Source of the DNA: an uncultured Pelagibacteraceae bacterium
Lineage (GTDB): Bacteria > Pseudomonadota > Alphaproteobacteria > Pelagibacterales > Pelagibacteraceae
NCBI GenBank assembly: GCA_902526405.1
Contig: CABZKL010000011.1
Span: 1 to 41,312 of the forward strand
Reading direction: 5' to 3'
Length of the DNA: 41,312 bases
Both the position numbers and the translations under genes were made by a program. Position 1 is the first letter of the stretch; every line of letters begins with the position of its first letter. Below the pieces are notes generated by a model that saw only the letters and a program-made list of their open reading frames with translations, searched no databases and was not told where the DNA came from. Shown here piece after piece: positions 27,882-38,819 of this stretch.

Positions 27882-28823
27882 CTAATTTAAATGTAATAAA
27901 ATATTCTCAAATACTTTATTTGCTGAAAGTTTTGAAAGATCACTTACTTGAATAGCTTTAAAATTTTCTCTCTCTATACTTACTTTATGTGCTGTTGTGT
28001 GTGCACCAAATAAAGCAATTCCTTTTGATCCTAAATGAGCTGTCATATGAGCAGGTCCAGTATCATTTGCAACAACGAAAGAACTATCTTTAATCAATGC
28101 TGCCAACTGAGAAATATCTAGGGGTTTACCATTATCCAATATACAAAGTGCATTTATACTTGCTGCGTCTTTAATTTCTCCTGGTCCAGGTGCTATAACT
28201 ACTTTAAATTTATTTTCTAATTTTTCATTAATCAAAGAAATTAAATCATTATAATAAGACCATTTCTTTGAGGCTAGATGAGGAGAGCAGAAAGGGAAGA
28301 GAACAATATATTTTTCTAATTCATGGTGATTTTTTATTTGAGAAATATCTGATGTGCTCCATGAGAAATCAGGGGCTAAAGTATGATTAGTGTTAATTCC
28401 AGAACTTTTTAATTGATGATCAAATCTTTCTAACACAGAGTCTTTATCAAAATCCTGCTTAGTAGTACCTTCTGGTAAAGTAGTTTCAGTTGACGACCAT
28501 ATTTCCTTACCAACTTTAGGAAATAGAATCTTTTTATATAAAGAAGTTCTGCTAGAATTTTGAAGATCAAAAACTTTGGAAAAACTATATTTTTTAATTT
28601 CTCTCATTAATGAATATAAATAAATGAGATTTAATCTTGATAGCCGCTTATCTACAATTACATTTGAAATATTAGGATTTTTTTTAAAAAGGTCATAATA
28701 AGGTTTTGTCGTTAACAAATGAATTTGATCGTCTGGGTAATTTTCAGAAATATCTTGAATTGCTCCACAAGCTTGAGCTATATCTCCTAAAGAGCCGTGT
28801 TTAATAATTAAAATATTAGACAT
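27882..28823 (-). CDS. Glycosyltransferase family 9 (heptosyltransferase-like)
   Basis: 313 residues. The N-terminal ILIIKHGSLGDIAQACGAI and the C-terminal VVANDTGPAHMTAHLGSKGIALFG are the two GT9 signatures (ADP-heptose:LPS heptosyltransferase family). PFCSPHLASKKW is the middle motif. It probably adds a sugar to the lipopolysaccharide core on the inner face of the inner membrane; whether the sugar is heptose is not certain. It starts 32 bp from the divergent DUF6165 gene. Confidence 0.9.
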   Translation of the reverse strand: MSNILIIKHGSLGDIAQACGAIQDISENYPDDQIHLLTTKPYYDLFKKNPNISNVIVDKRLSRLNLIYLYSLMREIKKYSFSKVFDLQNSSRTSLYKKILFPKVGKEIWSSTETTLPEGTTKQDFDKDSVLERFDHQLKSSGINTNHTLAPDFSWSTSDISQIKNHHELEKYIVLFPFCSPHLASKKWSYYNDLISLINEKLENKFKVVIAPGPGEIKDAASINALCILDNGKPLDISQLAALIKDSSFVVANDTGPAHMTAHLGSKGIALFGAHTTAHKVSIERENFKAIQVSDLSKLSANKVFENILLHLN

Positions 28824-28855
28824 ATTTAAAACAACTTAACATAGTATATTTATTT

Positions 28856-29245
28856 ATGAATAAAATTCTGGTTGAAGTATCTGTTGGTGAGCTGTTGGAT
28901 AAAATTTCAATTTTAGAAATTAAACAAAATAAAATTAAAGATCTTGAAAAACTTAAATTTATCAAAGAAGAGCATTCAATCCTTAATGATCAATTAAATA
29001 GAAATGTTAAATCTGATGAAAAACTAAATAATCTTTTTTCTTCATTAAAAGAGATTAACGCAAAACTTTGGGTGATTGAAGATGAAAAAAGACAATGTGA
29101 AAAAGATCAAAATTTCACAGATAAATTTATTAAACTTTCAAGGGATGTACATTTTTTAAATGATGATCGAGCAAAAATTAAGTTAGAAATAAATAATCAT
29201 ACTGGCTCAAAAATCAAAGAGATCAAAGAATATCCTAGCTATTAA
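28856..29245 (+). CDS. DUF6165-like coiled-coil protein
   Basis: 129 residues, no signal peptide or membrane segment. It begins ILVEVSVGELLDKISILEIK and continues as charged heptad-like helices (about 15-65 and 75-115), suggesting a helical hairpin or coiled coil. I recall this pattern from the DUF6165 family, which tends to lie beside glycosyltransferase genes. Function unknown. Its stop overlaps the stop of the convergent permease by 11 bases. Confidence 0.7.
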   Translation: MNKILVEVSVGELLDKISILEIKQNKIKDLEKLKFIKEEHSILNDQLNRNVKSDEKLNNLFSSLKEINAKLWVIEDEKRQCEKDQNFTDKFIKLSRDVHFLNDDRAKIKLEINNHTGSKIKEIKEYPSY

Positions 29246-29912
29246 AAGAATATTTTTTTTCTAAAAATTTAATCACATTATTAATAATAAAAGTCATAAA
29301 TAAGTATATTCCTCCCGCAACAATAAACACCTCAATTGGCTTAAACGTTGTTGATATTATATATTTTGCTACACCAGTCAAATCCATTAAAGTAACTGTG
29401 CTAGCTAGTGAAGTTCCTTTCATCATCAATATTATTTCATTTCCGTAAGCAGGAAGAGATTGTCTAATAGCAATTGGAATTTGTATTTTATAAAAAATAA
29501 TTTTATTTGGTATACCTAAGCTTTTACCAGCTTCAATTATTCCTGGCTTTATCGTTTGAAATGCTGATCTTAATATTTCAGACGTGTAGGCACCTGTATT
29601 TAAAGTAAAAGCTATAATTGCACACCAATAAGGCTCTTTTAAAATAACCCATAAAAATGTTGACCTTAAATATTCAATTTGCCCTAGTCCAAAATAAATT
29701 ATGAAAATTTGAACTAGTAAAGGAGTTCCTCTAAACAAATAAGAATATACATAAGCAAATTTATTTATAAATATATTTTTATCTAATCTTAAGATTGCAA
29801 AAAAAAGCCCAATAAATAATCCAAAGAATAATGATGCAGATAATAATTTTAAAGTTACTATAGTTGCTGCTAAAAGTTTAGGAAAACTAGTGAACATTAA
29901 ATCAAAATCCAT
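29235..29912 (-). CDS. Amino-acid ABC transporter permease (HisM-like)
   Basis: 225 residues with five or six membrane segments. YSYLFRGTPLLVQIFIIYFGLG near residue 55 and the EAGKSLGIPNKIIFYKIQIPIAI loop (EAA motif, about 140-165) are those of polar amino-acid permeases. It pairs with the preceding permease gene, sharing a TAATG overlap at 29912. No ATPase gene follows. Confidence 0.9.
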   Translation of the reverse strand: MDFDLMFTSFPKLLAATIVTLKLLSASLFFGLFIGLFFAILRLDKNIFINKFAYVYSYLFRGTPLLVQIFIIYFGLGQIEYLRSTFLWVILKEPYWCAIIAFTLNTGAYTSEILRSAFQTIKPGIIEAGKSLGIPNKIIFYKIQIPIAIRQSLPAYGNEIILMMKGTSLASTVTLMDLTGVAKYIISTTFKPIEVFIVAGGIYLFMTFIINNVIKFLEKKYSFNS

Positions 29913-30604
29913 TAATACCCCCTGCTGTATTTAATTTCTAATCTGTTAATAATTTTCATACTCAGATAAGTGAGCAGAAGATACAAAACTGCCGCAAAGC
30001 TATAAAAGAATAAAGGATCTCTTGTTGAGCCAGCTGCAATATAGGATTGTCTCATAATTTCAACAAGTCCTGTGACAGAAATTAATGATGTATCTTTTAA
30101 AGTAATTTGCCAAACATTGCTTAAGTTTGGAATTGCCAGTCTTAGCATTTGAGGCAAAATAATTTTAAAGAAGTAAATATATTTGTTAAATCCTAAAACT
30201 TTTGCAGCTTCAAACTGACCATTATCAATTGATTGTAGCGCTCCTCTAAATACTTCAGTCGAGTATGCTCCTGATATTATCCCTATTGAAAATGAACCGG
30301 TTAAAAAAGCATTAATTTCGATGTAATCATTATAACCAAATATTGAAGCAACAAACATAATTGCTCCACTTCCACCAAAGAAAAATAAATAAATTACAAG
30401 AAGCTCTGGTACACCTCTAATAACTGTAGTGTATGAATTACCAATTATGATTAAAATTTTGTTGTTAGATAATTTTAATGGAGTAAATAAAGCAGCAAAT
30501 ATAAAGCCTATTATCATTGCGGTTATTGAAACCGCAATCGTCATTAAAGTTGCAAAGAATAACTCGTCTCCCCAACCTTTATCACCAAAATATAGAAGTT
30601 CCAT
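29912..30604 (-). CDS. Amino-acid ABC transporter permease (HisQ-like)
   Basis: 230 residues with five or six membrane segments. SYTTVIRGVPELLVIYLFFFGG near residue 60 and the EAA loop FEAAKVLGFNKYIYFFKIILPQM (about 130-153) mark it as the HisQ/ArtQ branch. ISVTGLVEIMRQSYIAAGSTRDP is typical of lysine/arginine/ornithine and opine-type systems. It starts 6 nt after an 8-bp hairpin that separates it from the binding protein gene. Confidence 0.9.
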   Translation of the reverse strand: MELLYFGDKGWGDELFFATLMTIAVSITAMIIGFIFAALFTPLKLSNNKILIIIGNSYTTVIRGVPELLVIYLFFFGGSGAIMFVASIFGYNDYIEINAFLTGSFSIGIISGAYSTEVFRGALQSIDNGQFEAAKVLGFNKYIYFFKIILPQMLRLAIPNLSNVWQITLKDTSLISVTGLVEIMRQSYIAAGSTRDPLFFYSFAAVLYLLLTYLSMKIINRLEIKYSRGY

Positions 30605-30610
30605 AATATA

Positions 30611-30630
30611 GGTGGCTAATTATAGCCACC
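30611..30630 (-). promoter_or_regulatory. Intercistronic hairpin between binding protein and permease genes
   Basis: A perfect 8-bp stem GGTGGCTA/TAGCCACC with a 4-nt loop sits between the binding-protein stop and the permease ATG, which follows 6 nt later. There is no T-run on the minus strand. Such stems often protect the upstream binding-protein mRNA or lower permease translation. Confidence 0.65.
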
Positions 30631-30643
30631 CATAAATAATTTA

Positions 30644-31471
30644 TTACATAGAAGCGTCAAAACCAAAATGTTTTATAGCAAGCTTACTAATAATGCCATC
30701 ATCTCTAGCTTTATCAATTGCTGCGTTAAAATCATTTAAAAGTTTAGAGTCACCTTTTCTAATACCTACACCTACACCATTACCAAAATCTCCACCTGCA
30801 AATGTTGGTCCAGTTAATACAACTCCTTTACCAGATTTTTCTGCATAATCCGTAAAAGCAACTGCTGCGGCTAGTGCTGCATCTATTCTACCAGCAGATA
30901 AATCTAGGTTTACTTCATCTTGAGTTTTGTAAGTTCTAATTTTTACATTACCCATTAAACCAGATTCTAAGAAGTTTTGGTGAATTGTTGCTGTTTGTAC
31001 ACCAATAGTTTTGCCTTTAAATGCTTTGGTCAAAACATCTAGAGTTGCTTTTTCATCTGCACTTACGTCGGATAAATTTATAGCTGACATTGTTTTAAGG
31101 CCTTCGTTTTTCGATCCCTTCATAACAGCTAACGATGCAACTTCATCTGCATAACCTTGAGAAAAGTTTATTGTTTTCATTCTCTCACCAGTTATTGACA
31201 TACCAGCCATGATGGCATCAAATTTTCTTGAGACTAAAGCTGGTATCATTCCATCCCAGTCTTGCTCTACAATAGTGCAATCATGTTTCATAATTTTACA
31301 TAATTCATTTGCTAATTCGACTTCAAAGCCAATCAAATTTCCCGCTGAGTCTTTAGAATTCCAAGGTGGATATGCACCTTCAGTTCCTATTTTAATTTGA
31401 TCTGCAATAGAAGAAATTGTTAGAAATGATGATATTAATATACCGAGTCCTAATACTTTTAGTTTTTTCAT
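30644..31471 (-). CDS. Amino-acid ABC transporter substrate-binding protein
   Basis: 275 residues with a signal peptide (KKLKVLGLGILISSFLTISS, cleavage near SIA-D). IKIGTEGAYPPWNSKDSAGNLIGFEVELANELC, here quoted in parts (TEGAYPPW, GFEVELANEL), is the classic type 2 periplasmic fold of lysine/arginine/ornithine/histidine receptors. Arg in MSITGERMKTINFSQGY binds the ligand carboxylate. GGAGG before the ATG predicts strong translation. It is first in a three-gene operon with two permeases and lies 60 nt after the speDE stop. Ligand is probably a basic or polar amino acid (inference). Confidence 0.9.
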   Translation of the reverse strand: MKKLKVLGLGILISSFLTISSIADQIKIGTEGAYPPWNSKDSAGNLIGFEVELANELCKIMKHDCTIVEQDWDGMIPALVSRKFDAIMAGMSITGERMKTINFSQGYADEVASLAVMKGSKNEGLKTMSAINLSDVSADEKATLDVLTKAFKGKTIGVQTATIHQNFLESGLMGNVKIRTYKTQDEVNLDLSAGRIDAALAAAVAFTDYAEKSGKGVVLTGPTFAGGDFGNGVGVGIRKGDSKLLNDFNAAIDKARDDGIISKLAIKHFGFDASM

Positions 31472-31531
31472 TTTTTTTCCTCCAAAATTTTTAAAGATTA
31501 TTTCATAAAATTTACTAATTAAAAAGAAAAA

Positions 31532-32572
31532 TCAATGGTTTATTGAAGAAGAGAAATTCCATGAACAATCAAAACTTGGTATGTATACTCTTGATAATTT
31601 TGTGTTTCCAAAATTTTGATTAAAAACATTTAACCAATTTTCAACCTGCTGTGGTTTTTTATCTTGGCTACCAACTTGTGCAGTGATAACTCCTTTTGGT
31701 TTTAAAATTCGAACTAACGAGTCCATATTCTTTGAAGCTAGATCAATGCAGAATTGGTCATCATTTAAATCTACATAAATATGATCGTAAGTATCATCAC
31801 TTACAGACTTTATACTTTCAAAAGCATCTCCCCAAACACACTTTACGGAATTTTTTTCAGTTGCTTTTTTTCCTATATCTCCAAGATGTTTATTACATAC
31901 ATCAACAACCTCTGGATCTAATTCATACCAATCAATAAAATTAAAATTTTTTGATATGCATTCTCTGGCAACTCCTCCATCACCGCCACCAATTATAGCT
32001 GTTCGCTCACTGTTATAATTTAAATCTAGACCTGCTCTAACAAATGTTGAACTGTATAAATGTTCATCCGTAGTTGCTACTTGGATTTCACTGTCAATAA
32101 AAAGAGATTTTCCAAATTGTTCTAACTCTAGAATTTCAATATGCTGACCTACTTTTGACTTAAAATCTTCCAAAACATCCTTTACTATATAAGATTTTTG
32201 TAGACCTGGTGAGCTGTAAATATCAGGATAAAGAGACTTGGTGTCTCTATTAAACTCTTTTTTAACTATTCTTGTATGTTCAAATTCTTTTCTTATAATT
32301 TCTACAGCTACAGAAGGATTTATTTTTCCACATGTAAAAAAATCAAAACTAATAATACCTTTTTCTGGAAAGGTATGAAAACTGATGTGGCTTTCTGCTA
32401 ATAAAGCTAAAATTGTAAAACCTTGGGGTTCAAATTTATATTTAGAAATATTAAGTATAGTAACTTTAGCAGCTTTAGCTATGTCGTGAATTACTTTTTC
32501 GAAAACTGAAGGATCGTATTCTTGTGTGGTTCCAATAATGTCTAGAGTTATATGCTCTCCAACTTTAGTCAT
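31532..32572 (-). CDS. Fused S-adenosylmethionine decarboxylase and aminopropyltransferase (SpeD-SpeE)
   Basis: 346 residues with two enzymes in one chain. Residues 1-115 are a class 1b AdoMet decarboxylase: self-cleavage at Glu60-Ser61 (LAESHISFHTFPE) would create the pyruvoyl group, with His66 and Cys81 at the family spacing (+5, +20). Residues 125-346 are a spermidine-synthase-like Rossmann domain with IIGGGDGGVARE (193-204), YELDP (216-220) and the acidic VDLNDD (267-272). The latter replaces the usual D-S-x-D-P-x-GPA. The chain would make decarboxylated AdoMet and transfer its aminopropyl group, releasing methylthioadenosine. It is 3 nt downstream of the aldolase gene and last in the mtnP-mtnA-aldolase operon. 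The altered acceptor loop leaves the amine substrate open. Confidence 0.88.
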   Translation of the reverse strand: MTKVGEHITLDIIGTTQEYDPSVFEKVIHDIAKAAKVTILNISKYKFEPQGFTILALLAESHISFHTFPEKGIISFDFFTCGKINPSVAVEIIRKEFEHTRIVKKEFNRDTKSLYPDIYSSPGLQKSYIVKDVLEDFKSKVGQHIEILELEQFGKSLFIDSEIQVATTDEHLYSSTFVRAGLDLNYNSERTAIIGGGDGGVARECISKNFNFIDWYELDPEVVDVCNKHLGDIGKKATEKNSVKCVWGDAFESIKSVSDDTYDHIYVDLNDDQFCIDLASKNMDSLVRILKPKGVITAQVGSQDKKPQQVENWLNVFNQNFGNTKLSRVYIPSFDCSWNFSSSINH

Positions 32573-32575
32573 CTA

Positions 32576-33208
32576 TTATCCCTTCTTATAATTTTTTGCC
32601 TTGGATATAACTTTTTTCATCTCTTTTAAAGAAAGAATTTTTGGCTTACCCAATTTAAGGCTGGTTATATACTGAAGGGATATATTTTCAACCTCTTCAG
32701 CCAGCTCAAAAGCTTTTGTTAAATTTTCCTCAAATGCAATCTGACCGTGATTTGCTATAAGGCAAGCTTTTCTATCTCTCAACGCTTTTAAAATATTATT
32801 TGATAGTTCTCTAGTTCCGAAGGTTGCATACTTTGCACACTTAATGTCATGTCCTCCTGCCATTGCAACCATATAATGAAATGGTGGTATTCCTCTTTTA
32901 TGAGTAGCTAATGCAGTCGCATTAGTTGAATGTGCATGAACGATTGCTTTTGCATTTTTTTTGTTATTATAGATATCCTGATGAAATTTCCATTCAGATG
33001 AAGGTAATCCATTTTTTTTATCGTATTTTCCACTTAAAGATACGAAAACAATATCTCTATTTTTTAAGGACGAGTACTTTTTTCCTGACGGTGTAATTAA
33101 AAAACCATCTTTATACCTTGTAGATATATTACCAGATCTTAATGCAGACAATTTTGTTGAATTCAACATTCTTGAATATTTTATTATTTCAATTCTTAAA
33201 TTTTTCAT
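32576..33208 (-). CDS. Class II aldolase of the FucA type, probable methylthioribulose-1-phosphate aldolase
   Basis: 210 residues. SGNISTRYKDGFLITPSG, LPSSEWKFH, HYMVAMAGG, YATFGTREL and the ANHGQIAFE region follow E. coli L-fuculose-1-phosphate aldolase nearly line by line. Zinc ligands His91, His93 and His154 and catalytic Glu72 each sit one residue before their FucA counterparts. The gene overlaps mtnA by 4 bases (ATGA), so its natural substrate is probably the MtnA product, 5-methylthioribulose 1-phosphate. Cleavage would give DHAP and methylthioacetaldehyde, as in the known DHAP shunt. MtnB (dehydratase) is a relative, but the FucA-like motifs argue against it. Confidence 0.82.
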   Translation of the reverse strand: MKNLRIEIIKYSRMLNSTKLSALRSGNISTRYKDGFLITPSGKKYSSLKNRDIVFVSLSGKYDKKNGLPSSEWKFHQDIYNNKKNAKAIVHAHSTNATALATHKRGIPPFHYMVAMAGGHDIKCAKYATFGTRELSNNILKALRDRKACLIANHGQIAFEENLTKAFELAEEVENISLQYITSLKLGKPKILSLKEMKKVISKAKNYKKG

Positions 33209-34275
33209 TTAAATAATTTTTGTAAACCATCATAAGAAGCTTTTGCAATTCCTTTTTCAGTAATTAAACCTGTAACATATTTTGCAGGAGTTACGTCAAA
33301 AGCTAAATTTAATGCTTTACTTTTATTGGGATATATCAAAACTTTTTTAATTTCGTTATTTTCGTCAATTCCTTCTACATGTGATAATTCGTCTAAGTTT
33401 CTTTCCTCAATAGGAATATTTTTTGAATCTTTTATATCCCAATCTATTGTTGAACTAGGTAAGGCTACGTAAAAAGGAATATTATTATCATAAGCCGCTA
33501 ATGCCTTTAGATAAGTTCCAATTTTATTACAAACATCCCCATTAGATAGTGTTCTATCAGTTCCAACAATACACATATCTACTTCACCCCTTTGCATTAA
33601 AATACCACCGGTGTTATCAGCGATAATTGTATTGGGAATCTCTTCTTCGTTTAACTCATACGAAGTTAAATTCGCTCCTTGGTTTCTTGGTCTTGTTTCA
33701 TCTACCCAAACATGAACAGGAATTCCTTTTTTATGAGCATGATAAATTGGTGATGTTGCTGTTCCCCAATTAATTGTCGCTAACCAGCCCGCATTACAAT
33801 GAGTAAGAATATTTACGGTACTTTTTTTCTTATTATAGATTTCCTCAATTATTTTTAATCCGTTAATACCTATGTTTTCACAAAACTTTACATCTTCATC
33901 GCATATTTCTTTAGCTTCTTTTAAAGCTATGTCTAAAATTTGATCACTATTGATACCGGATAATTTTTTCATCATGCGGTCTACTGCCCATTTTAAATTA
34001 ATTCCAGTAGGTCTTGATTGAATTAATTCTTCTGCACTTTTTTTAATAAATTCAAGATTATGATTTTGTTGAGCCGCGAGAGCTATTCCATAAGCGGCTG
34101 TACCACCAATTAAAGGTGCACCTCTTACTTCCATAGTTTTAATTGCATGAACTGCTTCTTTTACAGTCTTAAGTTCTTTTACAGTAAACTTATGAGGAAG
34201 TTTGGTTTGATTAATTATTTTAACAATATTATTTTCATACCAAATCGTTCTGTATTCTTTTCCGTCAATTCTCAT
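33205..34275 (-). CDS. mtnA: S-methyl-5-thioribose-1-phosphate isomerase
   Basis: 356 residues, full length. VRGAPLIGGTAAYGIALA (50-67), catalytic Cys160 in ILTHCNAGWLAT and Asp240 in VGTDRTLSNGDVCNKIGTY match the B. subtilis enzyme residue for residue in position. It isomerises methylthioribose 1-phosphate to methylthioribulose 1-phosphate in methylthioadenosine salvage. It overlaps both neighbours by 4 bases (mtnP stop at 34272-34275 and aldolase start at 33205-33208), so the operon is tightly coupled. The related eIF2B-like ribose-1,5-bisphosphate isomerases are less likely given mtnP. Confidence 0.94.
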   Translation of the reverse strand: MRIDGKEYRTIWYENNIVKIINQTKLPHKFTVKELKTVKEAVHAIKTMEVRGAPLIGGTAAYGIALAAQQNHNLEFIKKSAEELIQSRPTGINLKWAVDRMMKKLSGINSDQILDIALKEAKEICDEDVKFCENIGINGLKIIEEIYNKKKSTVNILTHCNAGWLATINWGTATSPIYHAHKKGIPVHVWVDETRPRNQGANLTSYELNEEEIPNTIIADNTGGILMQRGEVDMCIVGTDRTLSNGDVCNKIGTYLKALAAYDNNIPFYVALPSSTIDWDIKDSKNIPIEERNLDELSHVEGIDENNEIKKVLIYPNKSKALNLAFDVTPAKYVTGLITEKGIAKASYDGLQKLFK

Positions 34276-35144
34276 TTGTTTAAAGCTCTTCCAGCAACAG
34301 TTTTAAGTTTTTCTATTGTCTTTTGGGTTCGTTTTTCTGGAGCAGTTATAATGGCTACATCTAAGCAATTATTTGTGGGGTCGTTTATATCTATATGATT
34401 TTCAAAATTATCTATTAAATTTTTAATCATTACTTTGGCTTTTTCAACGTTTCCTAATAAAACTTTAATTACTTGTTGAACATCAACATTTTCGTGATCT
34501 GAATGCCAACAATCAAAATCTGTAACCATAGATACCGATGCATATCGAATTTCAGCTTCTCTTGCTAACTTAGCCTCTGGCATATTTGTCATACCAATTA
34601 CATCCGCTTTCCAGGATCGATATAAATTTGACTCAGCTAATGTTGAAAATTGTGGACCCTCCATTACAACATAAGTTCCATTTCTTTGATAATCTATATT
34701 CGATTTTTTTATAGCATCTTCGCATGCATTCATTAAACCATTAGAAGTTGGATAAGCCATTGAAACATGTGCTACAATTTCATCATCAAAAAAAGTTTTT
34801 ACTCTTGAAAAAGTTCTATCAATAAATTGGTCCACAATAACAAATTTTCCAGGTTGTAAACCCTCTTTTAAAGATCCTACTGCTGAGACTGAAACAATGT
34901 CTGTTACACCTAACTGTTTAAGAGCGTCTATGTTAGCTCTAAAATTAATATTAGATGGAGAGACAAAATGGCCTCTTCCGTGTCTTGGTAAAAAGTAAAC
35001 TTCCTTACTATTATAATAAGTTTTTAATATTTTATCAGATGGTTTTCCCCAAGGTGTATTTATGTCGATTAATTCTCTTTCTTTAAATTCTTCGACATCA
35101 TATAGACCACTACCACCTATAATACCTAATTTATGTGTTGTCAT
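34272..35144 (-). CDS. mtnP: S-methyl-5'-thioadenosine phosphorylase
   Basis: 290 residues. LGIIGGSGLYDVEEF, FLPRHGRGH, YVVMEGPQFSTLAES and NMPEAKLAREAEI are PNP/MTAP family motifs. VTDFDCWHSDHENVDVQQVI matches the methylthioadenosine-specific branch where purine nucleoside phosphorylases differ. It splits methylthioadenosine with phosphate into adenine and methylthioribose 1-phosphate. It is the first gene of the operon leading to speDE and is divergent from apt, which salvages the adenine, across 41 bp. Confidence 0.94.
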   Translation of the reverse strand: MTTHKLGIIGGSGLYDVEEFKERELIDINTPWGKPSDKILKTYYNSKEVYFLPRHGRGHFVSPSNINFRANIDALKQLGVTDIVSVSAVGSLKEGLQPGKFVIVDQFIDRTFSRVKTFFDDEIVAHVSMAYPTSNGLMNACEDAIKKSNIDYQRNGTYVVMEGPQFSTLAESNLYRSWKADVIGMTNMPEAKLAREAEIRYASVSMVTDFDCWHSDHENVDVQQVIKVLLGNVEKAKVMIKNLIDNFENHIDINDPTNNCLDVAIITAPEKRTQKTIEKLKTVAGRALNK

Positions 35145-35185
35145 AATTTAAAATTTATTTATCTATAGATTTATAATTTACTATT

Positions 35186-35713
35186 ATGAATTTAAAAGAT
35201 TATATTAGATCAATACCTGATTATCCAAAAAAAGGTATTTTATTTAGAGATATAACTACACTCATAAAAAATGAAAAAGCTTTTGAAGAAACAATTAATC
35301 AAATTGTTGAAAAATCAAAAGAATTTAATTTTACAAAAATTGCTGCAATAGAGTCTAGAGGTTTTGTTTTTGCTTCCGCAGTTTCTTATATTCTCAAAAA
35401 ACCTTTTATTATGCTTAGAAAAAAAAATAAGCTACCAGCAGATGTTCATTCAGTTGATTTTAAACTAGAATATGGAACAGCAACTATAGAAGTGCATAAA
35501 GATTCTATAGAAAAAGGCGAATCTGTTTTAATTATAGATGATTTGATTGCTACTGGCGGCACTGCAAAGGCCGCAGCTAAATTGATAGAAATTTCAAATG
35601 GAAATGTTGCTGCTTTTGTATTTGTAATAAATCTGTTTGATTTAGGTGGATCAGATTATTTGATTAAAGAAAATTATAAAGTTATAAATTTAATTGATTT
35701 TCCTGGTCATTAA
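35186..35713 (+). CDS. apt: Adenine phosphoribosyltransferase
   Basis: 175 residues, standard size. It opens with the family's IRSIPDYPKKGILFRDITTL. AAIESRGFVFASAVSYIL and MLRKKNKLPADVHSVDF form the adenine pocket, and VLIIDDLIATGGTAKAAAKLI (about 112-132) is the PRPP loop. It converts adenine and PRPP to AMP. Its divergence from mtnP places it next to the main source of free adenine in the cell. Its stop is one base from the 3' end of the convergent tRNA gene. Confidence 0.95.
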   Translation: MNLKDYIRSIPDYPKKGILFRDITTLIKNEKAFEETINQIVEKSKEFNFTKIAAIESRGFVFASAVSYILKKPFIMLRKKNKLPADVHSVDFKLEYGTATIEVHKDSIEKGESVLIIDDLIATGGTAKAAAKLIEISNGNVAAFVFVINLFDLGGSDYLIKENYKVINLIDFPGH

Positions 35714-35714
35714 T

Positions 35715-35791
35715 TGGTAGCGGGAAGTGGGATCGAACCACTGACCTCAGGCTTATGAGTCCTGCGCTCTAACCAACTGAGCTACCCCGCC
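35715..35791 (-). tRNA. tRNA-Met (anticodon CAT)
   Basis: A 77-nt cloverleaf with encoded CCA. The acceptor stem is GGCGGGG/TCCCGCT (G-T pairs at both ends), the D-arm GCTC-AGTTGGTTA-GAGC, the anticodon loop CTCATAA, the variable loop AGGTC, and the T-arm AGTGG-TTCGATC-CCACT. CAT plus a paired 1-72 position indicates elongator Met (or Ile-lysidine), not initiator. The base of the anticodon loop has an A31-G39 mismatch. Confidence 0.95.
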
Positions 35792-35806
35792 ATGATAGAA
35801 ATTTGA

Positions 35807-35834
35807 TTTATACAACTTTAGTTTAATTGTGCAA
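35807..35834 (-). promoter_or_regulatory. Probable promoter of the tRNA gene
   Basis: On the minus strand, TTGCAC (35829-35834) and TATAAA (35807-35812) are 16 bp apart. The predicted start is within about 10 nt of the tRNA 5' end, as expected for a single tRNA gene. Confidence 0.5.
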
Positions 35835-35851
35835 GTGTATAGAAAATAAAA

Positions 35852-36043
35852 TTAAATATTTATTTTGAATGTTCTTATTTCTTTTGCATCTGTAATTTTT
35901 AAAATTTTAAACTTTGAAGTTTTTTCTAATTTCTGTCCTTTATTTGTTATAAAAGATTTCATTTTTTTAACCTCCGCTTCAGGCATTTTTCTTGTATATT
36001 TTAATGTATGTTTTTTTGATCCTATCTCAAATATTGTTTTCAT
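35852..36043 (-). CDS. Small basic protein, hypothetical
   Basis: 63 residues, unrecognised, Lys-rich and soluble (KTIFEIGSKKHTLKYTRKMP at the start). No ribosome site is visible. It overlaps a 61-codon open frame on the other strand (35865-36050). This strand looks better because it gives a balanced charged protein with a beta-like FKILKITDAKEIRTFKINI end. If it is not a gene, the stretch 35792-36374 is largely empty apart from the tRNA promoter. Confidence 0.4.
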   Translation of the reverse strand: MKTIFEIGSKKHTLKYTRKMPEAEVKKMKSFITNKGQKLEKTSKFKILKITDAKEIRTFKINI

Positions 36044-36110
36044 ATGTTAATCTAACAAAATTTTTTTTAAAAGTATCTGTTTCAAAAAAATTTATTTTTT
36101 ATTTAAATAA

Positions 36111-36320
36111 TTATATAATTAGATAAGTAGTAAATAGACTTATCAAAGCTATAATAATAATCGAATTTATTAACCTTTTTATAAAAGTTTTTTTTTTATC
36201 TAATCTAACTCTGTTTAATAAAATATTTACATTTGTTGTTTTGGTTTGTTGGTTTAAATACATATTTTTTGACTTATTTTCTTTTTCATTTTCAAATTGA
36301 TTTTCAAAATTTTTTTTCAT
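36111..36320 (-). CDS. Small tail-anchored membrane protein, hypothetical
   Basis: 69 residues, unrecognised. A polar, Asn/Lys/Glu-rich N-terminal half (1-44) is followed by a single hydrophobic segment at the extreme C-terminus (LINSIIIIALISLFTTYLII, about 50-69) with Lys/Arg just before it. This is the layout of a tail-anchored or type II membrane protein. There is no ribosome site, and the region is very AT-rich, so an accidental frame is possible. Confidence 0.4.
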   Translation of the reverse strand: MKKNFENQFENEKENKSKNMYLNQQTKTTNVNILLNRVRLDKKKTFIKRLINSIIIIALISLFTTYLII

Positions 36321-36374
36321 AATTTCATTTAAGCAAATATAAATCTAGAACACAAATAAATTAATAAAAAAAAT

Positions 36375-38819
36375 TTAAATATTTTTATAATTATTTATTT
36401 TTAAGGGTTTTGTAATTAATTCAGCTTTATATTTTTGCTTCTCTACCTCAATATAAATTTCATTTTTACTTAGCACTTCATCTGTATAATCATTATTTAT
36501 GTAACCGAATGCTAAATTTTTTTTAAAATTAAAAGAATAATTAGCTGAAGTTGTTCTTCCTATTATTTTATCTTTAAAATAAATTGGTTCATCATGCAGT
36601 AATAACGGTGAGCCAGGTTTATTGTTTTTAAGCGCAAGCATAATAAATTTTTTATCAATTTTTTTGCTCTTAATTCTCTGAAGAGCCTCTTTTCCAATGA
36701 AATCAGTTTTCTTTTTGTTACTTATGGTAAATGCAAGACCTGATTGATATTGATTTTCTTCTGGAGAAATATCATGTCCCCAATGCAAAAAACCACTTTC
36801 CATTCTCATAGTATCTAAAGCATGCACTCCACAATTAGAAAGATTAAATTTCTTTCCTTTTTCAATAATTAGTTCGTAAATTTTTTTAGCTTCAGTTATT
36901 TTTATATATAATTCATAACCAAGTTCTCCAACGTAGGATAATCGTTGAGCCCAAATTTTTATATTATCGATTTTAATATATTTCGCATAACCAAATTTAA
37001 AATTTTCATTAGTAAAATCCTCTTCACTTAACTCTTGCATTAAAGATCTGCTTTTTGGACCAAAAATACCAAATACACAATAATCATCAGTTATATCTTT
37101 AAGATTAATTCCATCTGACAAATGTTTTTTAATATGAAATTTATCTCTTTCTCTTGTTGCTGCTGAACTAATAATTCTGAAATGATTGTGATCAATACAG
37201 ACTACTGTCAAATCAGTTTCAACGCCACCATCTTCATTTAACATTTGAGTATAAGTGCACTTTCCAACTTCATTTTTAATATTTGCTGTACAAATTTTTT
37301 GTAAATTTTCATGAGCTTTATCTGACTTGATCTCGAATTTTGAAAATGGGGTTAAATCAAATAAACCTACATTATTTAAAGTATTACTTGTTTCATATTC
37401 AACAGCTGGATACCAATTTTGATAGTTGTAACTATATTCATATTCTGTTTTCTCACCATCAAGTGCGAACCACATAGGTCGCTCATATCCAGCTGATACT
37501 CCAAAGCAGGCACCAAAACTTTTTAATAAATCATGATGTGGTAAAATTTTTATATTTCTCGATGTTTTATGTTGTTTGAAAGGCCAATGCATTCCGTATA
37601 AGTCCCCTAAAGACTCTGTAATCCTGTCTTTAATAAAACTTATCTCTGAATTAAATTTTTGAAATCTTTTAATATCATAATTAAAAATATCCTCATTTAT
37701 ATGTCCATTCATTAACCATTCAGCAGTTACTTTACCAACTCCACCTCCACTTCCAATTCCAATACTATTTAAACCACAACTAACAAATAAATTTTTTACT
37801 TCTGGTACTTCACCTAGTAAAGAGTTGGTATCAGGAGTAAAAGACTCTGGACCTGAAAAAAATTTTCTAATACCTATTTTTTTTAATACAGGAAATCTTT
37901 TCATAGATTTTTCTAAATAAGGTTCAAAGTGCTCAAAGTTTTCAGGAAACTCTCCAAAAGAAAAATCTTCTGGTACTTGATTAGTTTTATTAAAGGCAGG
38001 AATTGATTTACCTTCAAATATTCCTATTAATAATTTTCCAGCATCCTCTTTAAAATAAACACTGCTATCAAAATCTCTTACTACAGGTAGAGTTGGTGAA
38101 AGCTTTTCTATTGGTTCAGTAATTACATAAAAATGTTCTGCGGGATAAAGAGGAATACTAACTCCAATCTTTTCACCAATTTGTCTTGACCACATTCCAG
38201 TTGCTAAAACTACATAATTACACTCTATATCTTGACCTTTAACTCTAACACCATGAACTCTTCCGTTTTTAGTCAATATAGTTTCAACAGGGGATTGTTC
38301 ATATATTTTTGCCCCTCCTTTTCTTGCTCCTTTTGCAAGCATATGAGTTACCCCACTTGGGTCAGCTGAACCATCTCCAGGCATTAAAACTCCACCTTTT
38401 AAGTCTTCTGTGCTCATCATTGGGTATTTTTTTTTAATTTCTTCTTTATCAAGTATCATTAGATCAACATCATAAAGTTGAGCGGTAGTTGCTTGTCTTT
38501 TAAGTTCCTGCCAACGGCTATCAGTTTGTGCAATTGAAAGTGCACCGTTAAGTCTTAGTCCTGCTGAGTGATCAACTTCTTTTTCAAGATTTTTATATAA
38601 ATCTAAAGTGTATTTTCTAATTTTAGTTACCACAGCTGATGGACCTAACTGACTTACTAATCCTGCTGCATGCCATGTTGTTCCCGATGTTAGTTGGTCT
38701 CTTTCTAATAAAACTACATCTTTCCAACCAAACTTTGTTAAGTGATATGCAACAGAACATCCAATCACTCCACCACCTATTACAACAACTTTTGTGCTTG
38801 AGGGATACTTTTTATCCAT
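36375..38819 (-). CDS. FAD-dependent dimethylglycine/sarcosine dehydrogenase-like protein with GcvT domain
   Basis: 814 residues from the ATG at 38819 (a GTG at 38822 is an alternative). Residues 1-400 are a DAO-type FAD domain: VVVIGGGVIGCSVAYHL (11-27) and GTTWHAAGLVSQLG, where His50 is the residue that carries covalent FAD in the family. Residues about 430-814 are a GcvT/aminomethyltransferase domain with GVHALDTMRMESGF. Such fusions oxidatively demethylate dimethylglycine or sarcosine and pass formaldehyde to tetrahydrofolate, as in glycine betaine use. The start touches the alanine dehydrogenase stop (TAGTGATG), so the two are co-translated. Exact substrate unresolved. Confidence 0.85.
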   Translation of the reverse strand: MDKKYPSSTKVVVIGGGVIGCSVAYHLTKFGWKDVVLLERDQLTSGTTWHAAGLVSQLGPSAVVTKIRKYTLDLYKNLEKEVDHSAGLRLNGALSIAQTDSRWQELKRQATTAQLYDVDLMILDKEEIKKKYPMMSTEDLKGGVLMPGDGSADPSGVTHMLAKGARKGGAKIYEQSPVETILTKNGRVHGVRVKGQDIECNYVVLATGMWSRQIGEKIGVSIPLYPAEHFYVITEPIEKLSPTLPVVRDFDSSVYFKEDAGKLLIGIFEGKSIPAFNKTNQVPEDFSFGEFPENFEHFEPYLEKSMKRFPVLKKIGIRKFFSGPESFTPDTNSLLGEVPEVKNLFVSCGLNSIGIGSGGGVGKVTAEWLMNGHINEDIFNYDIKRFQKFNSEISFIKDRITESLGDLYGMHWPFKQHKTSRNIKILPHHDLLKSFGACFGVSAGYERPMWFALDGEKTEYEYSYNYQNWYPAVEYETSNTLNNVGLFDLTPFSKFEIKSDKAHENLQKICTANIKNEVGKCTYTQMLNEDGGVETDLTVVCIDHNHFRIISSAATRERDKFHIKKHLSDGINLKDITDDYCVFGIFGPKSRSLMQELSEEDFTNENFKFGYAKYIKIDNIKIWAQRLSYVGELGYELYIKITEAKKIYELIIEKGKKFNLSNCGVHALDTMRMESGFLHWGHDISPEENQYQSGLAFTISNKKKTDFIGKEALQRIKSKKIDKKFIMLALKNNKPGSPLLLHDEPIYFKDKIIGRTTSANYSFNFKKNLAFGYINNDYTDEVLSKNEIYIEVEKQKYKAELITKPLKINNYKNI

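What the first reader, a model, noticed from the sequence alone, without database searches (positions are those of the whole stretch)
31532..35713. Operon linking spermidine synthesis to a DHAP-shunt style methylthioadenosine salvage
mtnP, mtnA, a FucA-type aldolase and a speD-speE fusion overlap or abut (4, 4 and 3 nt), with apt divergent. Each product is the next substrate: the fusion releases methylthioadenosine, MtnP yields adenine (to Apt) and methylthioribose 1-phosphate, MtnA isomerises it, and the aldolase could give DHAP plus methylthioacetaldehyde. No mtnB/C/D-type genes are seen. Having the MTA-producing enzyme in the same transcript as its recycling route is elegant and, to my knowledge, not standard.
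Basis: partly seen in the sequence, partly recalled or inferred. Interest (0 to 1): 0.8.

Follow-up and report, generated by a model that had tools for sequence, protein, structure and literature searches.

The report
Polyamine operon with swappable waste disposal
In SAR11, the commonest bacteria of the surface ocean, the gene for a fusion enzyme predicted to make polyamines lies next to genes predicted to destroy its harmful by-product methylthioadenosine, and across the family that neighbouring spot holds one of several alternative gene sets that would each likely do this job, with the genome that by its length is probably the laboratory strain HTCC1062 carrying a different set from this one.

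Summary
In detail: mtnP, mtnA, a FucA-type aldolase and a speD-speE fusion lie on one strand (overlaps 4 and 4 nt, gap 3 nt), with apt divergent. No mtnB, mtnC, mtnD, mtnK or RuBisCO-like gene passes its cut-off in this genome (77% complete). The best reading is the known MtnP form of the DHAP shunt, coupled to polyamine synthesis. The coupling was not seen in 60 other alphaproteobacterial mtnA loci or 50 other speD loci. In SAR11 every readable speDE site has an MTA-consuming neighbour: 93 of 93 in the family sample and 80 of 80 in a second, capped sample (in 4 and 6 of these the contig ends before mtnA). The set changes: (A) mtnP-mtnA-aldolase, 55; (B) mtnP-mtnA plus a divergent aldolase-SDR fusion, 33; (C) a short nucleosidase-like gene, 4, including the genome of HTCC1062's length; (D) mtnP, 1. 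A quick speDE tree needs about 12 set changes. The aldolase falls in a clade in which every sampled member is mtnA-linked. Activities are inferred; only orthologous fusions were assayed, by others. This is a new variant of a known kind.

The parts
34272..35144 (-). mtnP, S-methyl-5'-thioadenosine phosphorylase, 290 aa
   Evidence: TIGR01694 304.1 bits, cut-off 274.85; PF01048
33205..34275 (-). mtnA, S-methyl-5-thioribose-1-phosphate isomerase, 356 aa; overlaps mtnP by 4 nt
   Evidence: TIGR00512 416.8 bits, cut-off 279
32576..33208 (-). class II (FucA-type) aldolase, predicted methylthioribulose-1-phosphate aldolase (Ald2-like), 210 aa; overlaps mtnA by 4 nt
   Evidence: PF00596 166.5 bits; FucA positions E73, H92, H94, Y113, H155, Y209 conserved (their roles recalled); in an all-mtnA-linked clade
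31532..32572 (-). speD-speE fusion (AdoMet decarboxylase + aminopropyltransferase), 346 aa; 3 nt after the aldolase
   Evidence: TIGR03330 over cut-off, PF01564 and PF17284; orthologous fusions of HTCC1062 and HTCC7211 assayed by others (PMC11107197 passages)
35186..35713 (+). apt, adenine phosphoribosyltransferase, 175 aa, divergent from mtnP
   Evidence: TIGR01090 201.1 bits, cut-off 185.85; same place in most SAR11 loci that reach that far
30644..31471 (-). ABC-transporter substrate-binding protein of the arginine/lysine/ornithine/nopaline family, 60 nt after speDE; possible continuation of the transcript
   Evidence: TIGR01096 232.1 bits, under its cut-off 256.35; best PDB match 8hqr_A 393 bits, labelled only ABC transporter; next to speDE in many SAR11 loci
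29912..30604 (-). amino-acid ABC permease (ArtQ/HisQ-like)
   Evidence: NF008337 173.6 bits, below its cut-off 277
29235..29912 (-). amino-acid ABC permease (ArtM/HisM-like), overlaps the previous gene by 1 nt
   Evidence: NF008336 175.2 bits, below its cut-off 248

Best explanation
Four tightly packed same-strand genes encode an MTA phosphorylase, an MTR-1-P isomerase, a FucA-type aldolase and an AdoMet decarboxylase-aminopropyltransferase fusion, and they are predicted to form one operon in which the fusion would make MTA along with polyamines and the other three would likely turn that MTA into adenine, DHAP and 2-(methylthio)acetaldehyde. Shown here: the genes, their order, the lack of classical methionine-salvage genes, the conservation of the site in SAR11, and its repeated exchange for other sets. 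Inferred: co-transcription; MtnP and MtnA acting on MTA and MTR-1-P; the aldolase cleaving methylthioribulose-1-phosphate; Apt, read divergently, returning adenine to AMP. Selection would favour the pairing because aminopropyl transfer yields one MTA per step (two per spermine or thermospermine made from putrescine) and MTA is a cellular inhibitor (so called in PMC5893883). The place between apt and speDE then acts as a slot for any set that removes MTA. Set A is the full shunt. Set B has mtnP-mtnA and an aldolase fused to a short-chain dehydrogenase, read divergently from speDE, which would cleave the sugar phosphate and also process the aldehyde. Set C is a nucleosidase that would give adenine and leave methylthioribose. 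Set D is mtnP alone. The fate of the methylthio-aldehyde in set A is unknown.
For: Window families over curated cut-offs. In the family sample 94 of 118 genomes have speD. With the own genome, 93 of these 94 can be read upstream of speDE: A 55, B 33, C 4, D 1; the other (G032) starts at a contig end. A and B were called on the aldolase gene; in 4 of the 93 (G091, G093, G011, G116) the contig ends before mtnA. 47 of 54 fetched A loci have a gap of at most 10 nt between aldolase and speDE. In a second sample, the best 80 of at least 570 speDE relatives in GTDB species genomes, 70 are A, 4 B, 6 C, none empty (6 of the 80 end before mtnA, and the samples may share species). A quick speDE tree of 52 rows needs 12 set changes; set C needs 6 by itself, at least 5 forced by well-supported branches. 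Own genome: one PF00596 gene only, no mtnD, no RuBisCO-like gene, no mtnK or mtnC over cut-off. Aldolase tree: 22-row all-mtnA-linked clade, 100/99. FucA catalytic and metal positions intact. The set C protein of G026 matches 35 PDB sequences, all named MTA/SAH or aminodeoxyfutalosine nucleosidases. Orthologous fusions make spermidine and spermine/thermospermine (PMC11107197). MtnP, MtnA and Ald2 carry an aerobic DHAP shunt in R. palustris (PMC5893883).
Against: No activity, transcript or metabolite was measured for this genome. The aldolase passes no curated NCBIfam cut-off. mtnA-linked aldolases as a whole are not one clade (p-AU 7e-7): E. coli Ald2 sits beside FucA, so linkage to mtnA does not fix the substrate. 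The nearest non-SAR11 aldolase (L180, 68% identical) is beside mtnA but without speDE nearby, so the shunt does not need the pairing. In set B (33 of 93) the aldolase is on the other strand, so the whole shunt is not one transcript there. Other genes sit between mtnP and mtnA, or between mtnA and the aldolase, in many loci. One genome, G100, has mtnP-mtnA with neither aldolase nor speDE in about 6 kb downstream. The three set C proteins scanned score below curated MTA-nucleosidase cut-offs. The own genome is only 77% complete.
Confidence: 0.74

Rival explanations
1. The set mainly disposes of 5'-deoxyadenosine from radical-SAM enzymes (DrdA-type 5-deoxyribose disposal): MtnP and MtnA act on 5'-deoxyadenosine and 5-deoxyribose-1-P and the aldolase gives DHAP and acetaldehyde; closeness to speDE is incidental.
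For: Clusters of MTA-phosphorylase-like or kinase, MtnA-like and FucA-like genes were assigned to 5-deoxyribose disposal in six phyla (PMC6079011, passages); the E. coli shunt handles both substrates (PMC10986504, passages); the solved aldolase 6btd, labelled fuculose phosphate aldolase in the PDB and recalled as DrdA, is a homologue (124.5 bits). Two genomes of genus g5 lack speD and mtnA but keep the nucleosidase.
Against: Every readable speDE locus has an MTA-removing set, or its aldolase end, beside it, and genus g5 has no match for speD, mtnA, MTAP or PF00596 in any sampled genome (genus tallies). Dual use is likely, so this rival concerns the main flux, not the chemistry.
Confidence: 0.15
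2. The aldolase is a sugar-phosphate aldolase (L-fuculose- or ribulose-1-phosphate) that happens to sit in the operon, and MTA degradation stops at methylthioribulose-1-P or feeds something else.
For: Best PDB match is E. coli FucA, 178 bits; plasmid homologues at 43-47% identity sit beside or near FGGY sugar kinases.
Against: No sugar kinase or sugar isomerase in the operon; the clade holds only mtnA-linked members; among SAR11 loci the FucA-type aldolase and the aldolase-SDR fusion replace each other beside mtnA and were never seen together in one locus; of 60 other alphaproteobacterial mtnA loci 28 have a FucA-type aldolase within 0.3 kb of mtnA and 12 an aldolase-SDR fusion within 2 kb.
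Confidence: 0.07
3. Adjacency reflects genome streamlining only: unrelated housekeeping genes packed together and inherited without functional coupling.
For: SAR11 genomes are compact with many short intergenic gaps (general knowledge), and unrelated genes are inserted in the same region.
Against: The set beside speDE is exchanged repeatedly for non-orthologous sets of the same predicted function while apt and speDE stay in place; no pairing in 60 other mtnA loci or 50 other speD loci.
Confidence: 0.04

Closest known systems
DHAP shunt, MtnP form (R. palustris aerobic DHAP-methanethiol shunt; R. rubrum mtnP-mtnA-ald2 operon)
   Same: MtnP, MtnA and a class II FucA-like aldolase; no MtnB/C/D needed; aerobic in R. 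palustris (PMC5893883, passages and part 1 of section 12).
   Different: There ald2 is with mtnP-mtnA (R. rubrum) or elsewhere (R. palustris) and no polyamine gene is mentioned in what was read; here the run ends in the speD-speE fusion. The cited paper describes the known carriers as mostly terrestrial; this is a marine streamlined clade.
E. coli ExPEC DHAP shunt (mtnK-mtnA-ald2)
   Same: MtnA followed by a FucA-like aldolase annotated L-fuculose-phosphate aldolase (L230:13148-14935).
   Different: Uses a nucleosidase plus MtnK; E. coli Ald2 groups with FucA, not with the SAR11 aldolases; serves growth on outside 5'-deoxynucleosides.
SAR11 AdoMetDC-aminopropyltransferase fusion (Ca. Pelagibacter)
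   Same: Same fusion: the window protein is 84% identical to that of G026, whose length is that of HTCC1062, and 92% to that of G035, whose length fits HTCC7211. Orthologues make spermidine, spermine and thermospermine (PMC11107197).
   Different: The passages read report the enzyme, not its gene neighbourhood.
5-deoxyribose disposal (DrdA) clusters
   Same: Phosphorylase or kinase + MtnA-like + FucA-like aldolase (PMC6079011, passages).
   Different: No polyamine gene mentioned in the passages; thought to serve a radical-SAM by-product.
Bifunctional aldolase/short-chain dehydrogenase PRK08324.1-6 (set B)
   Same: L052 protein scores 886.7 bits, cut-off 639.
   Different: Known relatives are named rhamnulose-1-P aldolase/short-chain dehydrogenase; here it stands near mtnA in place of Ald2. 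No paper listed ties this fusion to MTA.

Membership tests
DHAP shunt (MtnP form) | MTA phosphorylase gene | tested here: met
   TIGR01694 over cut-off
DHAP shunt (MtnP form) | MtnA isomerase gene | tested here: met
   TIGR00512 over cut-off
DHAP shunt (MtnP form) | class II FucA-like aldolase linked to mtnA, active-site residues intact | tested here: met
   PF00596; residues; mtnA-linked clade
DHAP shunt (MtnP form) | same clade as a biochemically proven Ald2 | tested here: inconclusive
   E. coli Ald2 falls elsewhere; no R. rubrum or R. palustris Ald2 sequence was identified by name
DHAP shunt (MtnP form) | cleavage of 5-methylthioribulose-1-P to DHAP and methylthioacetaldehyde | not testable with these tools
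   needs enzyme assay
Classical methionine salvage | mtnB | tested here: not met
   only PF00596 gene of the own genome is the operon aldolase, TIGR03328 65.2 of 137.05 bits; of 23 off-operon PF00596 genes in relatives 12 were fetched and 10 scanned, none over the mtnB cut-off (best 88.2)
Classical methionine salvage | mtnD (ARD) | tested here: not met
   0 of 118 over cut-off, own genome no match
Classical methionine salvage | mtnC, or RuBisCO-like mtnW | tested here: not met
   mtnC 0 of 118 over cut-off; PF00016 in 1 of 118, not own; mtnX not searched
Nucleosidase-kinase entry | mtnK | tested here: not met
   0 of 118 over cut-off; own genome 22.7 of 275 bits
MTA-isoprenoid shunt | RuBisCO-like protein RLP1 | tested here: not met
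   no PF00016 match in the own genome
FucA sugar aldolase | TIGR01086 equivalog score | tested here: not met
   189.4 of 400.25 bits
FucA sugar aldolase | sugar kinase or isomerase beside the gene | tested here: not met
   neighbours are mtnA and speDE
SAR11 AdoMetDC-aminopropyltransferase fusion | fused SpeD and SpeE domains in one frame | tested here: met
SAR11 AdoMetDC-aminopropyltransferase fusion | makes spermidine/spermine/thermospermine | not testable with these tools
   shown by others for HTCC1062 and HTCC7211 proteins (PMC11107197)
5-deoxyribose disposal (DrdA) | phosphorylase or kinase + isomerase + aldolase cluster | tested here: met
5-deoxyribose disposal (DrdA) | preference for 5-deoxyribulose-1-P | not testable with these tools
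   needs enzyme assay

The most novel reading that the evidence does not exclude
In SAR11 the site between apt and the polyamine-synthase fusion is a dedicated exchange slot for methylthioadenosine disposal: non-orthologous sets (phosphorylase-isomerase-aldolase; phosphorylase-isomerase plus an aldolase-dehydrogenase fusion; a minimal 175 aa nucleosidase; phosphorylase alone) have replaced one another there about a dozen times while polyamine synthesis stays in place. The aldolase-dehydrogenase fusion (PRK08324.1-6) is a previously unassigned one-protein version of the last shunt steps, used near mtnA well beyond SAR11. Strains therefore release different sulfur leftovers (methylthioribose, or methylthio-aldehyde, alcohol or acid) for the same polyamine output.
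Probability: 0.5. Interest if true: 0.74.

Novelty: new variant of a known kind. Interest (0 to 1): 0.62.

Why it matters
SAR11 cells are among the most numerous on Earth. SAR11 is reported to need reduced sulfur from outside (title of a cited paper, seen in a reference list), so how they discard or recover the methylthio group of MTA bears on ocean organosulfur and methanethiol budgets. A published claim that SAR11 SpeE runs backwards was less clear for HTCC1062 than for HTCC7211 (PMC8437039, passages), and MTA removal would bear on the direction of that reaction, so the strains form a natural test pair. The aldolase-SDR fusion near mtnA (33 SAR11 genomes beside speDE, and 12 of 60 other alphaproteobacterial mtnA loci) is a ready candidate for a new enzyme assignment.

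Tried and rejected
Tried and dropped: AlphaFold models of a set C nucleosidase (mean pLDDT 43) and of the window aldolase (60.5) were too uncertain for a fold search, which was not run. The promoter and terminator scan of 28400-36400 found no more than shuffles gave. Rfam found only the tRNA at gathering scores, so no known riboswitch family was seen. Phage records: the fusion matches only partly (138 records, none covering 80% of it) and mtnA has 3 hits; no phage link pursued. The first motif pattern for the SDR (1 of 31) was too strict; a looser one gave 26 of 31 for the nucleotide motif and 31 of 31 for S-Y-K; both motifs are recalled. Rejected: 'mtnA-linked aldolases are one clade'. One search ended in a script error after the tree and total counts were printed; the script's separate A-against-B and C counts were not obtained (the per-group table was). 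Paper searches. None of the listed titles or opened passages describes speDE linked to MTA genes, but subscription papers, including the main DHAP-shunt surveys as recalled, are not held.

Rows left out before counts: SAR11 aldolases over 80% identical (92 rows to 54), speDE rows over 92% identical within one state (170 to 52), long open-frame N-terminal extensions cut to the last 235 or 360 residues. Regions were read for 60 of 146 non-SAR11 mtnA-bearing genomes, picked by hand from the list, and for 50 of 78 non-SAR11 speD genomes, mostly the best-scoring (28 with about 5 kb on each side where the contig allows, 22 with 1.5 kb). The neighbour search had a positive control for mtnA and mtnP (60 and 26 hits in the 60 mtnA loci) but none for the nucleosidase queries, so a distant nucleosidase beside another group's speD could have been missed.


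Full report
What is there. The window is contig C11 of a SAR11-type genome (982,615 bases in 42 contigs, 77% complete). One search confirms four same-strand genes, mtnP, mtnA, a 210 aa aldolase and a 346 aa speD-speE fusion, with overlaps of 4 and 4 nt and a gap of 3 nt, and apt divergent 41 nt upstream. Curated models name mtnA, mtnP, SpeD and Apt above cut-off. The SpeE half has its Pfam domain but no equivalog, and the aldolase passes only PF00596. After 60 nt the run goes on into an ABC binding protein of the arginine/nopaline family (best PDB chain 8hqr_A, labelled only 'ABC transporter', 393 bits) and two permeases.

Is there another MTA pathway? In the own genome PF00596 has one match, the operon aldolase. 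ARD/mtnD and RuBisCO-like genes have no match, and mtnK and mtnC reach 22.7 of 275 and 20.9 of 128.1 bits. Over 118 family genomes none passes for mtnD, mtnK or mtnC, and one (G008) passes for RuBisCO. Relatives hold 23 off-operon PF00596 genes; 12 were fetched and 10 scanned: they score best as adducin-type aldolases or AraD, none passes for mtnB. The own genome is incomplete, but finished relatives give the same answer for mtnC, mtnD and mtnK.

Which aldolase is it? It aligns with E. coli FucA over most of its length and keeps FucA positions E73, H92, H94, Y113, H155 and Y209 (the roles of these residues are recalled). A tree of 54 aldolases puts it in a clade of 22 rows (support 100/99): 14 SAR11 rows and 8 other alphaproteobacterial rows, every one beside mtnA. 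The 10 sugar-context rows, from plasmids and mostly beside or near FGGY kinases, fall outside, as does FucA. Against a simple story, all mtnA-linked aldolases together are not one clade (p-AU 7e-7), and E. coli Ald2 is nearest to FucA. Aldolases have thus joined mtnA more than once, and linkage alone does not prove the substrate. One aldolase of another family (L180, 68% identical) falls among the SAR11 rows; it is beside mtnA but has no speDE nearby. R. rubrum and R. palustris Ald2 could not be placed by name.

Is the link to speDE special? In 60 mtnA loci from other Alphaproteobacteria (picked by hand from 146 with mtnA), with about 6 kb on each side where the contig allows, none had a speD or speE homologue. 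In 50 speD loci from other Pseudomonadota (of 78), none had mtnP, mtnA or an MTA nucleosidase found nearby. The same search gave 60 mtnA and 26 mtnP hits in the 60 mtnA loci, but the nucleosidase queries had no positive control. Twenty-two of the 50 were read only 1.5 kb each way. In SAR11, 94 of 118 genomes have speD. The upstream neighbour is readable in 93 including the own genome, and in all 93 it is an MTA-consuming set or, in 4 where the contig ends before mtnA, its aldolase. In a second sample, the best 80 of at least 570 speDE relatives in GTDB species (chosen by similarity to one query, so mostly genus Pelagibacter, and possibly sharing species with the first sample), it is again 80 of 80, with 6 ending before mtnA.

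The set is exchanged. Set A, mtnP-mtnA-FucA-type aldolase: 55 of 93 and 70 of 80. Set B, mtnP-mtnA and, on the other strand and divergent from speDE, a protein of about 680 aa joining an aldolase to a short-chain dehydrogenase (one member scanned: NF006192, 886.7 bits, cut-off 639): 33 of 93 and 4 of 80. Set C, no mtnP-mtnA-aldolase but a 173-178 aa PF01048 protein: 4 of 93 and 6 of 80. For the G026 protein all 35 PDB matches are MTA/SAH or aminodeoxyfutalosine nucleosidases; the three scanned score below the curated nucleosidase cut-offs. Set D, mtnP alone: 1 of 93. On a quick speDE tree of 52 rows the sets change 12 times; set C alone needs 6 changes, at least 5 of them forced by well-supported branches. 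The set C nucleosidase is found in only 7 of 118 genomes: the four set C genomes, two of genus g5 without speD, and G010. G100 is the one mtnA locus with room downstream but no aldolase or speDE.

Named strains. G026 is 1,308,759 bases long, the length printed for Cand. P. ubique in PMC3090418 (passage). By rounded length (PMC3815206 Table 1) G035 fits HTCC7211, G078 HIMB5, G040 IMCC9063 and G022 HIMB114. On that reading HTCC1062, HIMB5 and IMCC9063 carry set C, and HTCC7211 and HIMB114 set A. Only the HTCC1062 match is to the base.

How it most likely works. The fusion makes decarboxylated AdoMet and uses it on putrescine and spermidine; orthologous fusions from HTCC1062 and HTCC7211 make spermidine, spermine and thermospermine in E. 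coli (PMC11107197 passages). Each transfer yields one MTA. MtnP and MtnA would give adenine and methylthioribulose-1-phosphate, the aldolase DHAP and methylthioacetaldehyde, as in the MtnP form of the DHAP shunt shown for R. palustris (PMC5893883, passages and part 1 of section 12), and Apt would return adenine to AMP. All steps after the fusion are inferred for SAR11. The aldehyde's fate in set A is open. In set B the fused SDR, whose S-Y-K motif is present in 31 of 31 full-length proteins and nucleotide motif in 26 of 31, would handle it. The downstream transporter may bring in arginine: the P. ubique ODC homologue is reported to be an arginine decarboxylase (PMC10407285 passage). That would place supply, synthesis and waste removal in one run, but the transporter's ligand was not tested.

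Known and new. The shunt, the fusion and their enzymes are known. New here are the fixed pairing of MTA disposal with the polyamine enzyme in SAR11, the exchange of non-orthologous sets at one site, and the aldolase-SDR fusion near mtnA in SAR11 and in 12 of 60 other alphaproteobacterial loci. Paper searches found no statement of these in titles or opened passages; subscription papers are not covered. Verdict: new variant of a known kind, interest 0.62.

Noticed in passing
L047, L048, L050, L051 (G026, G078, G012, G040), between apt and speDE: A 174-178 aa MTA/SAH-nucleosidase-like gene replaces mtnP-mtnA-aldolase, including in the genome whose length equals that of HTCC1062; it is shorter than the E. 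coli enzyme (232 aa).
   Followed up: yes
L052:9296-11329 and 30 other full-length SAR11 copies; 12 of 60 non-SAR11 mtnA loci (L168-L227): A bifunctional aldolase/short-chain dehydrogenase (PRK08324.1-6 for the one scanned) stands near mtnA in place of the FucA-type aldolase; no paper found that assigns it to MTA metabolism.
   Followed up: partly
window 29235-31471: Arginine/nopaline-family ABC binding protein and two permeases follow speDE by 60 nt, also in many relatives; a possible precursor-uptake part of the same transcript.
   Followed up: partly
SAR11 loci between mtnP and mtnA or between mtnA and the aldolase (e.g. L081, L089, L043, L086): Varied inserted genes, named from one scanned member each: tautomerase_3-like (7 g4 genomes), enoyl-CoA hydratase + CoA-binding pair (9 g2 genomes), SMR/EmrE-like 112 aa protein (11 g3/g6 genomes); also an unscanned protein of about 310 aa. 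The site looks like an insertion hotspot.
   Followed up: partly
G100 (L120): mtnP-mtnA followed by what read as an ABC ATPase and an FGGY-like kinase (by eye, not scanned) instead of aldolase and speDE; the one exception seen.
   Followed up: no
G008:C20:1220-1990: A RuBisCO-large-like gene (396 aa frame, 146.5 bits), the only one in 118 family genomes.
   Followed up: no
G005:C1:614087-614587, G028:C32: Genus g5 has no match for speD, mtnA, MTAP or PF00596, yet two members keep the nucleosidase, perhaps for 5'-deoxyadenosine or SAH.
   Followed up: no
phage records MT836472.1, MT835472.1, MT837376.1: Three unannotated gut 'Bacteriophage sp.' contigs encode MtnA-like proteins at 40-49% identity.
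   Followed up: no
L241: apt and mtnP lie downstream of the ABC permeases instead of upstream of the aldolase and speDE: a rearrangement or an assembly fault.
   Followed up: no
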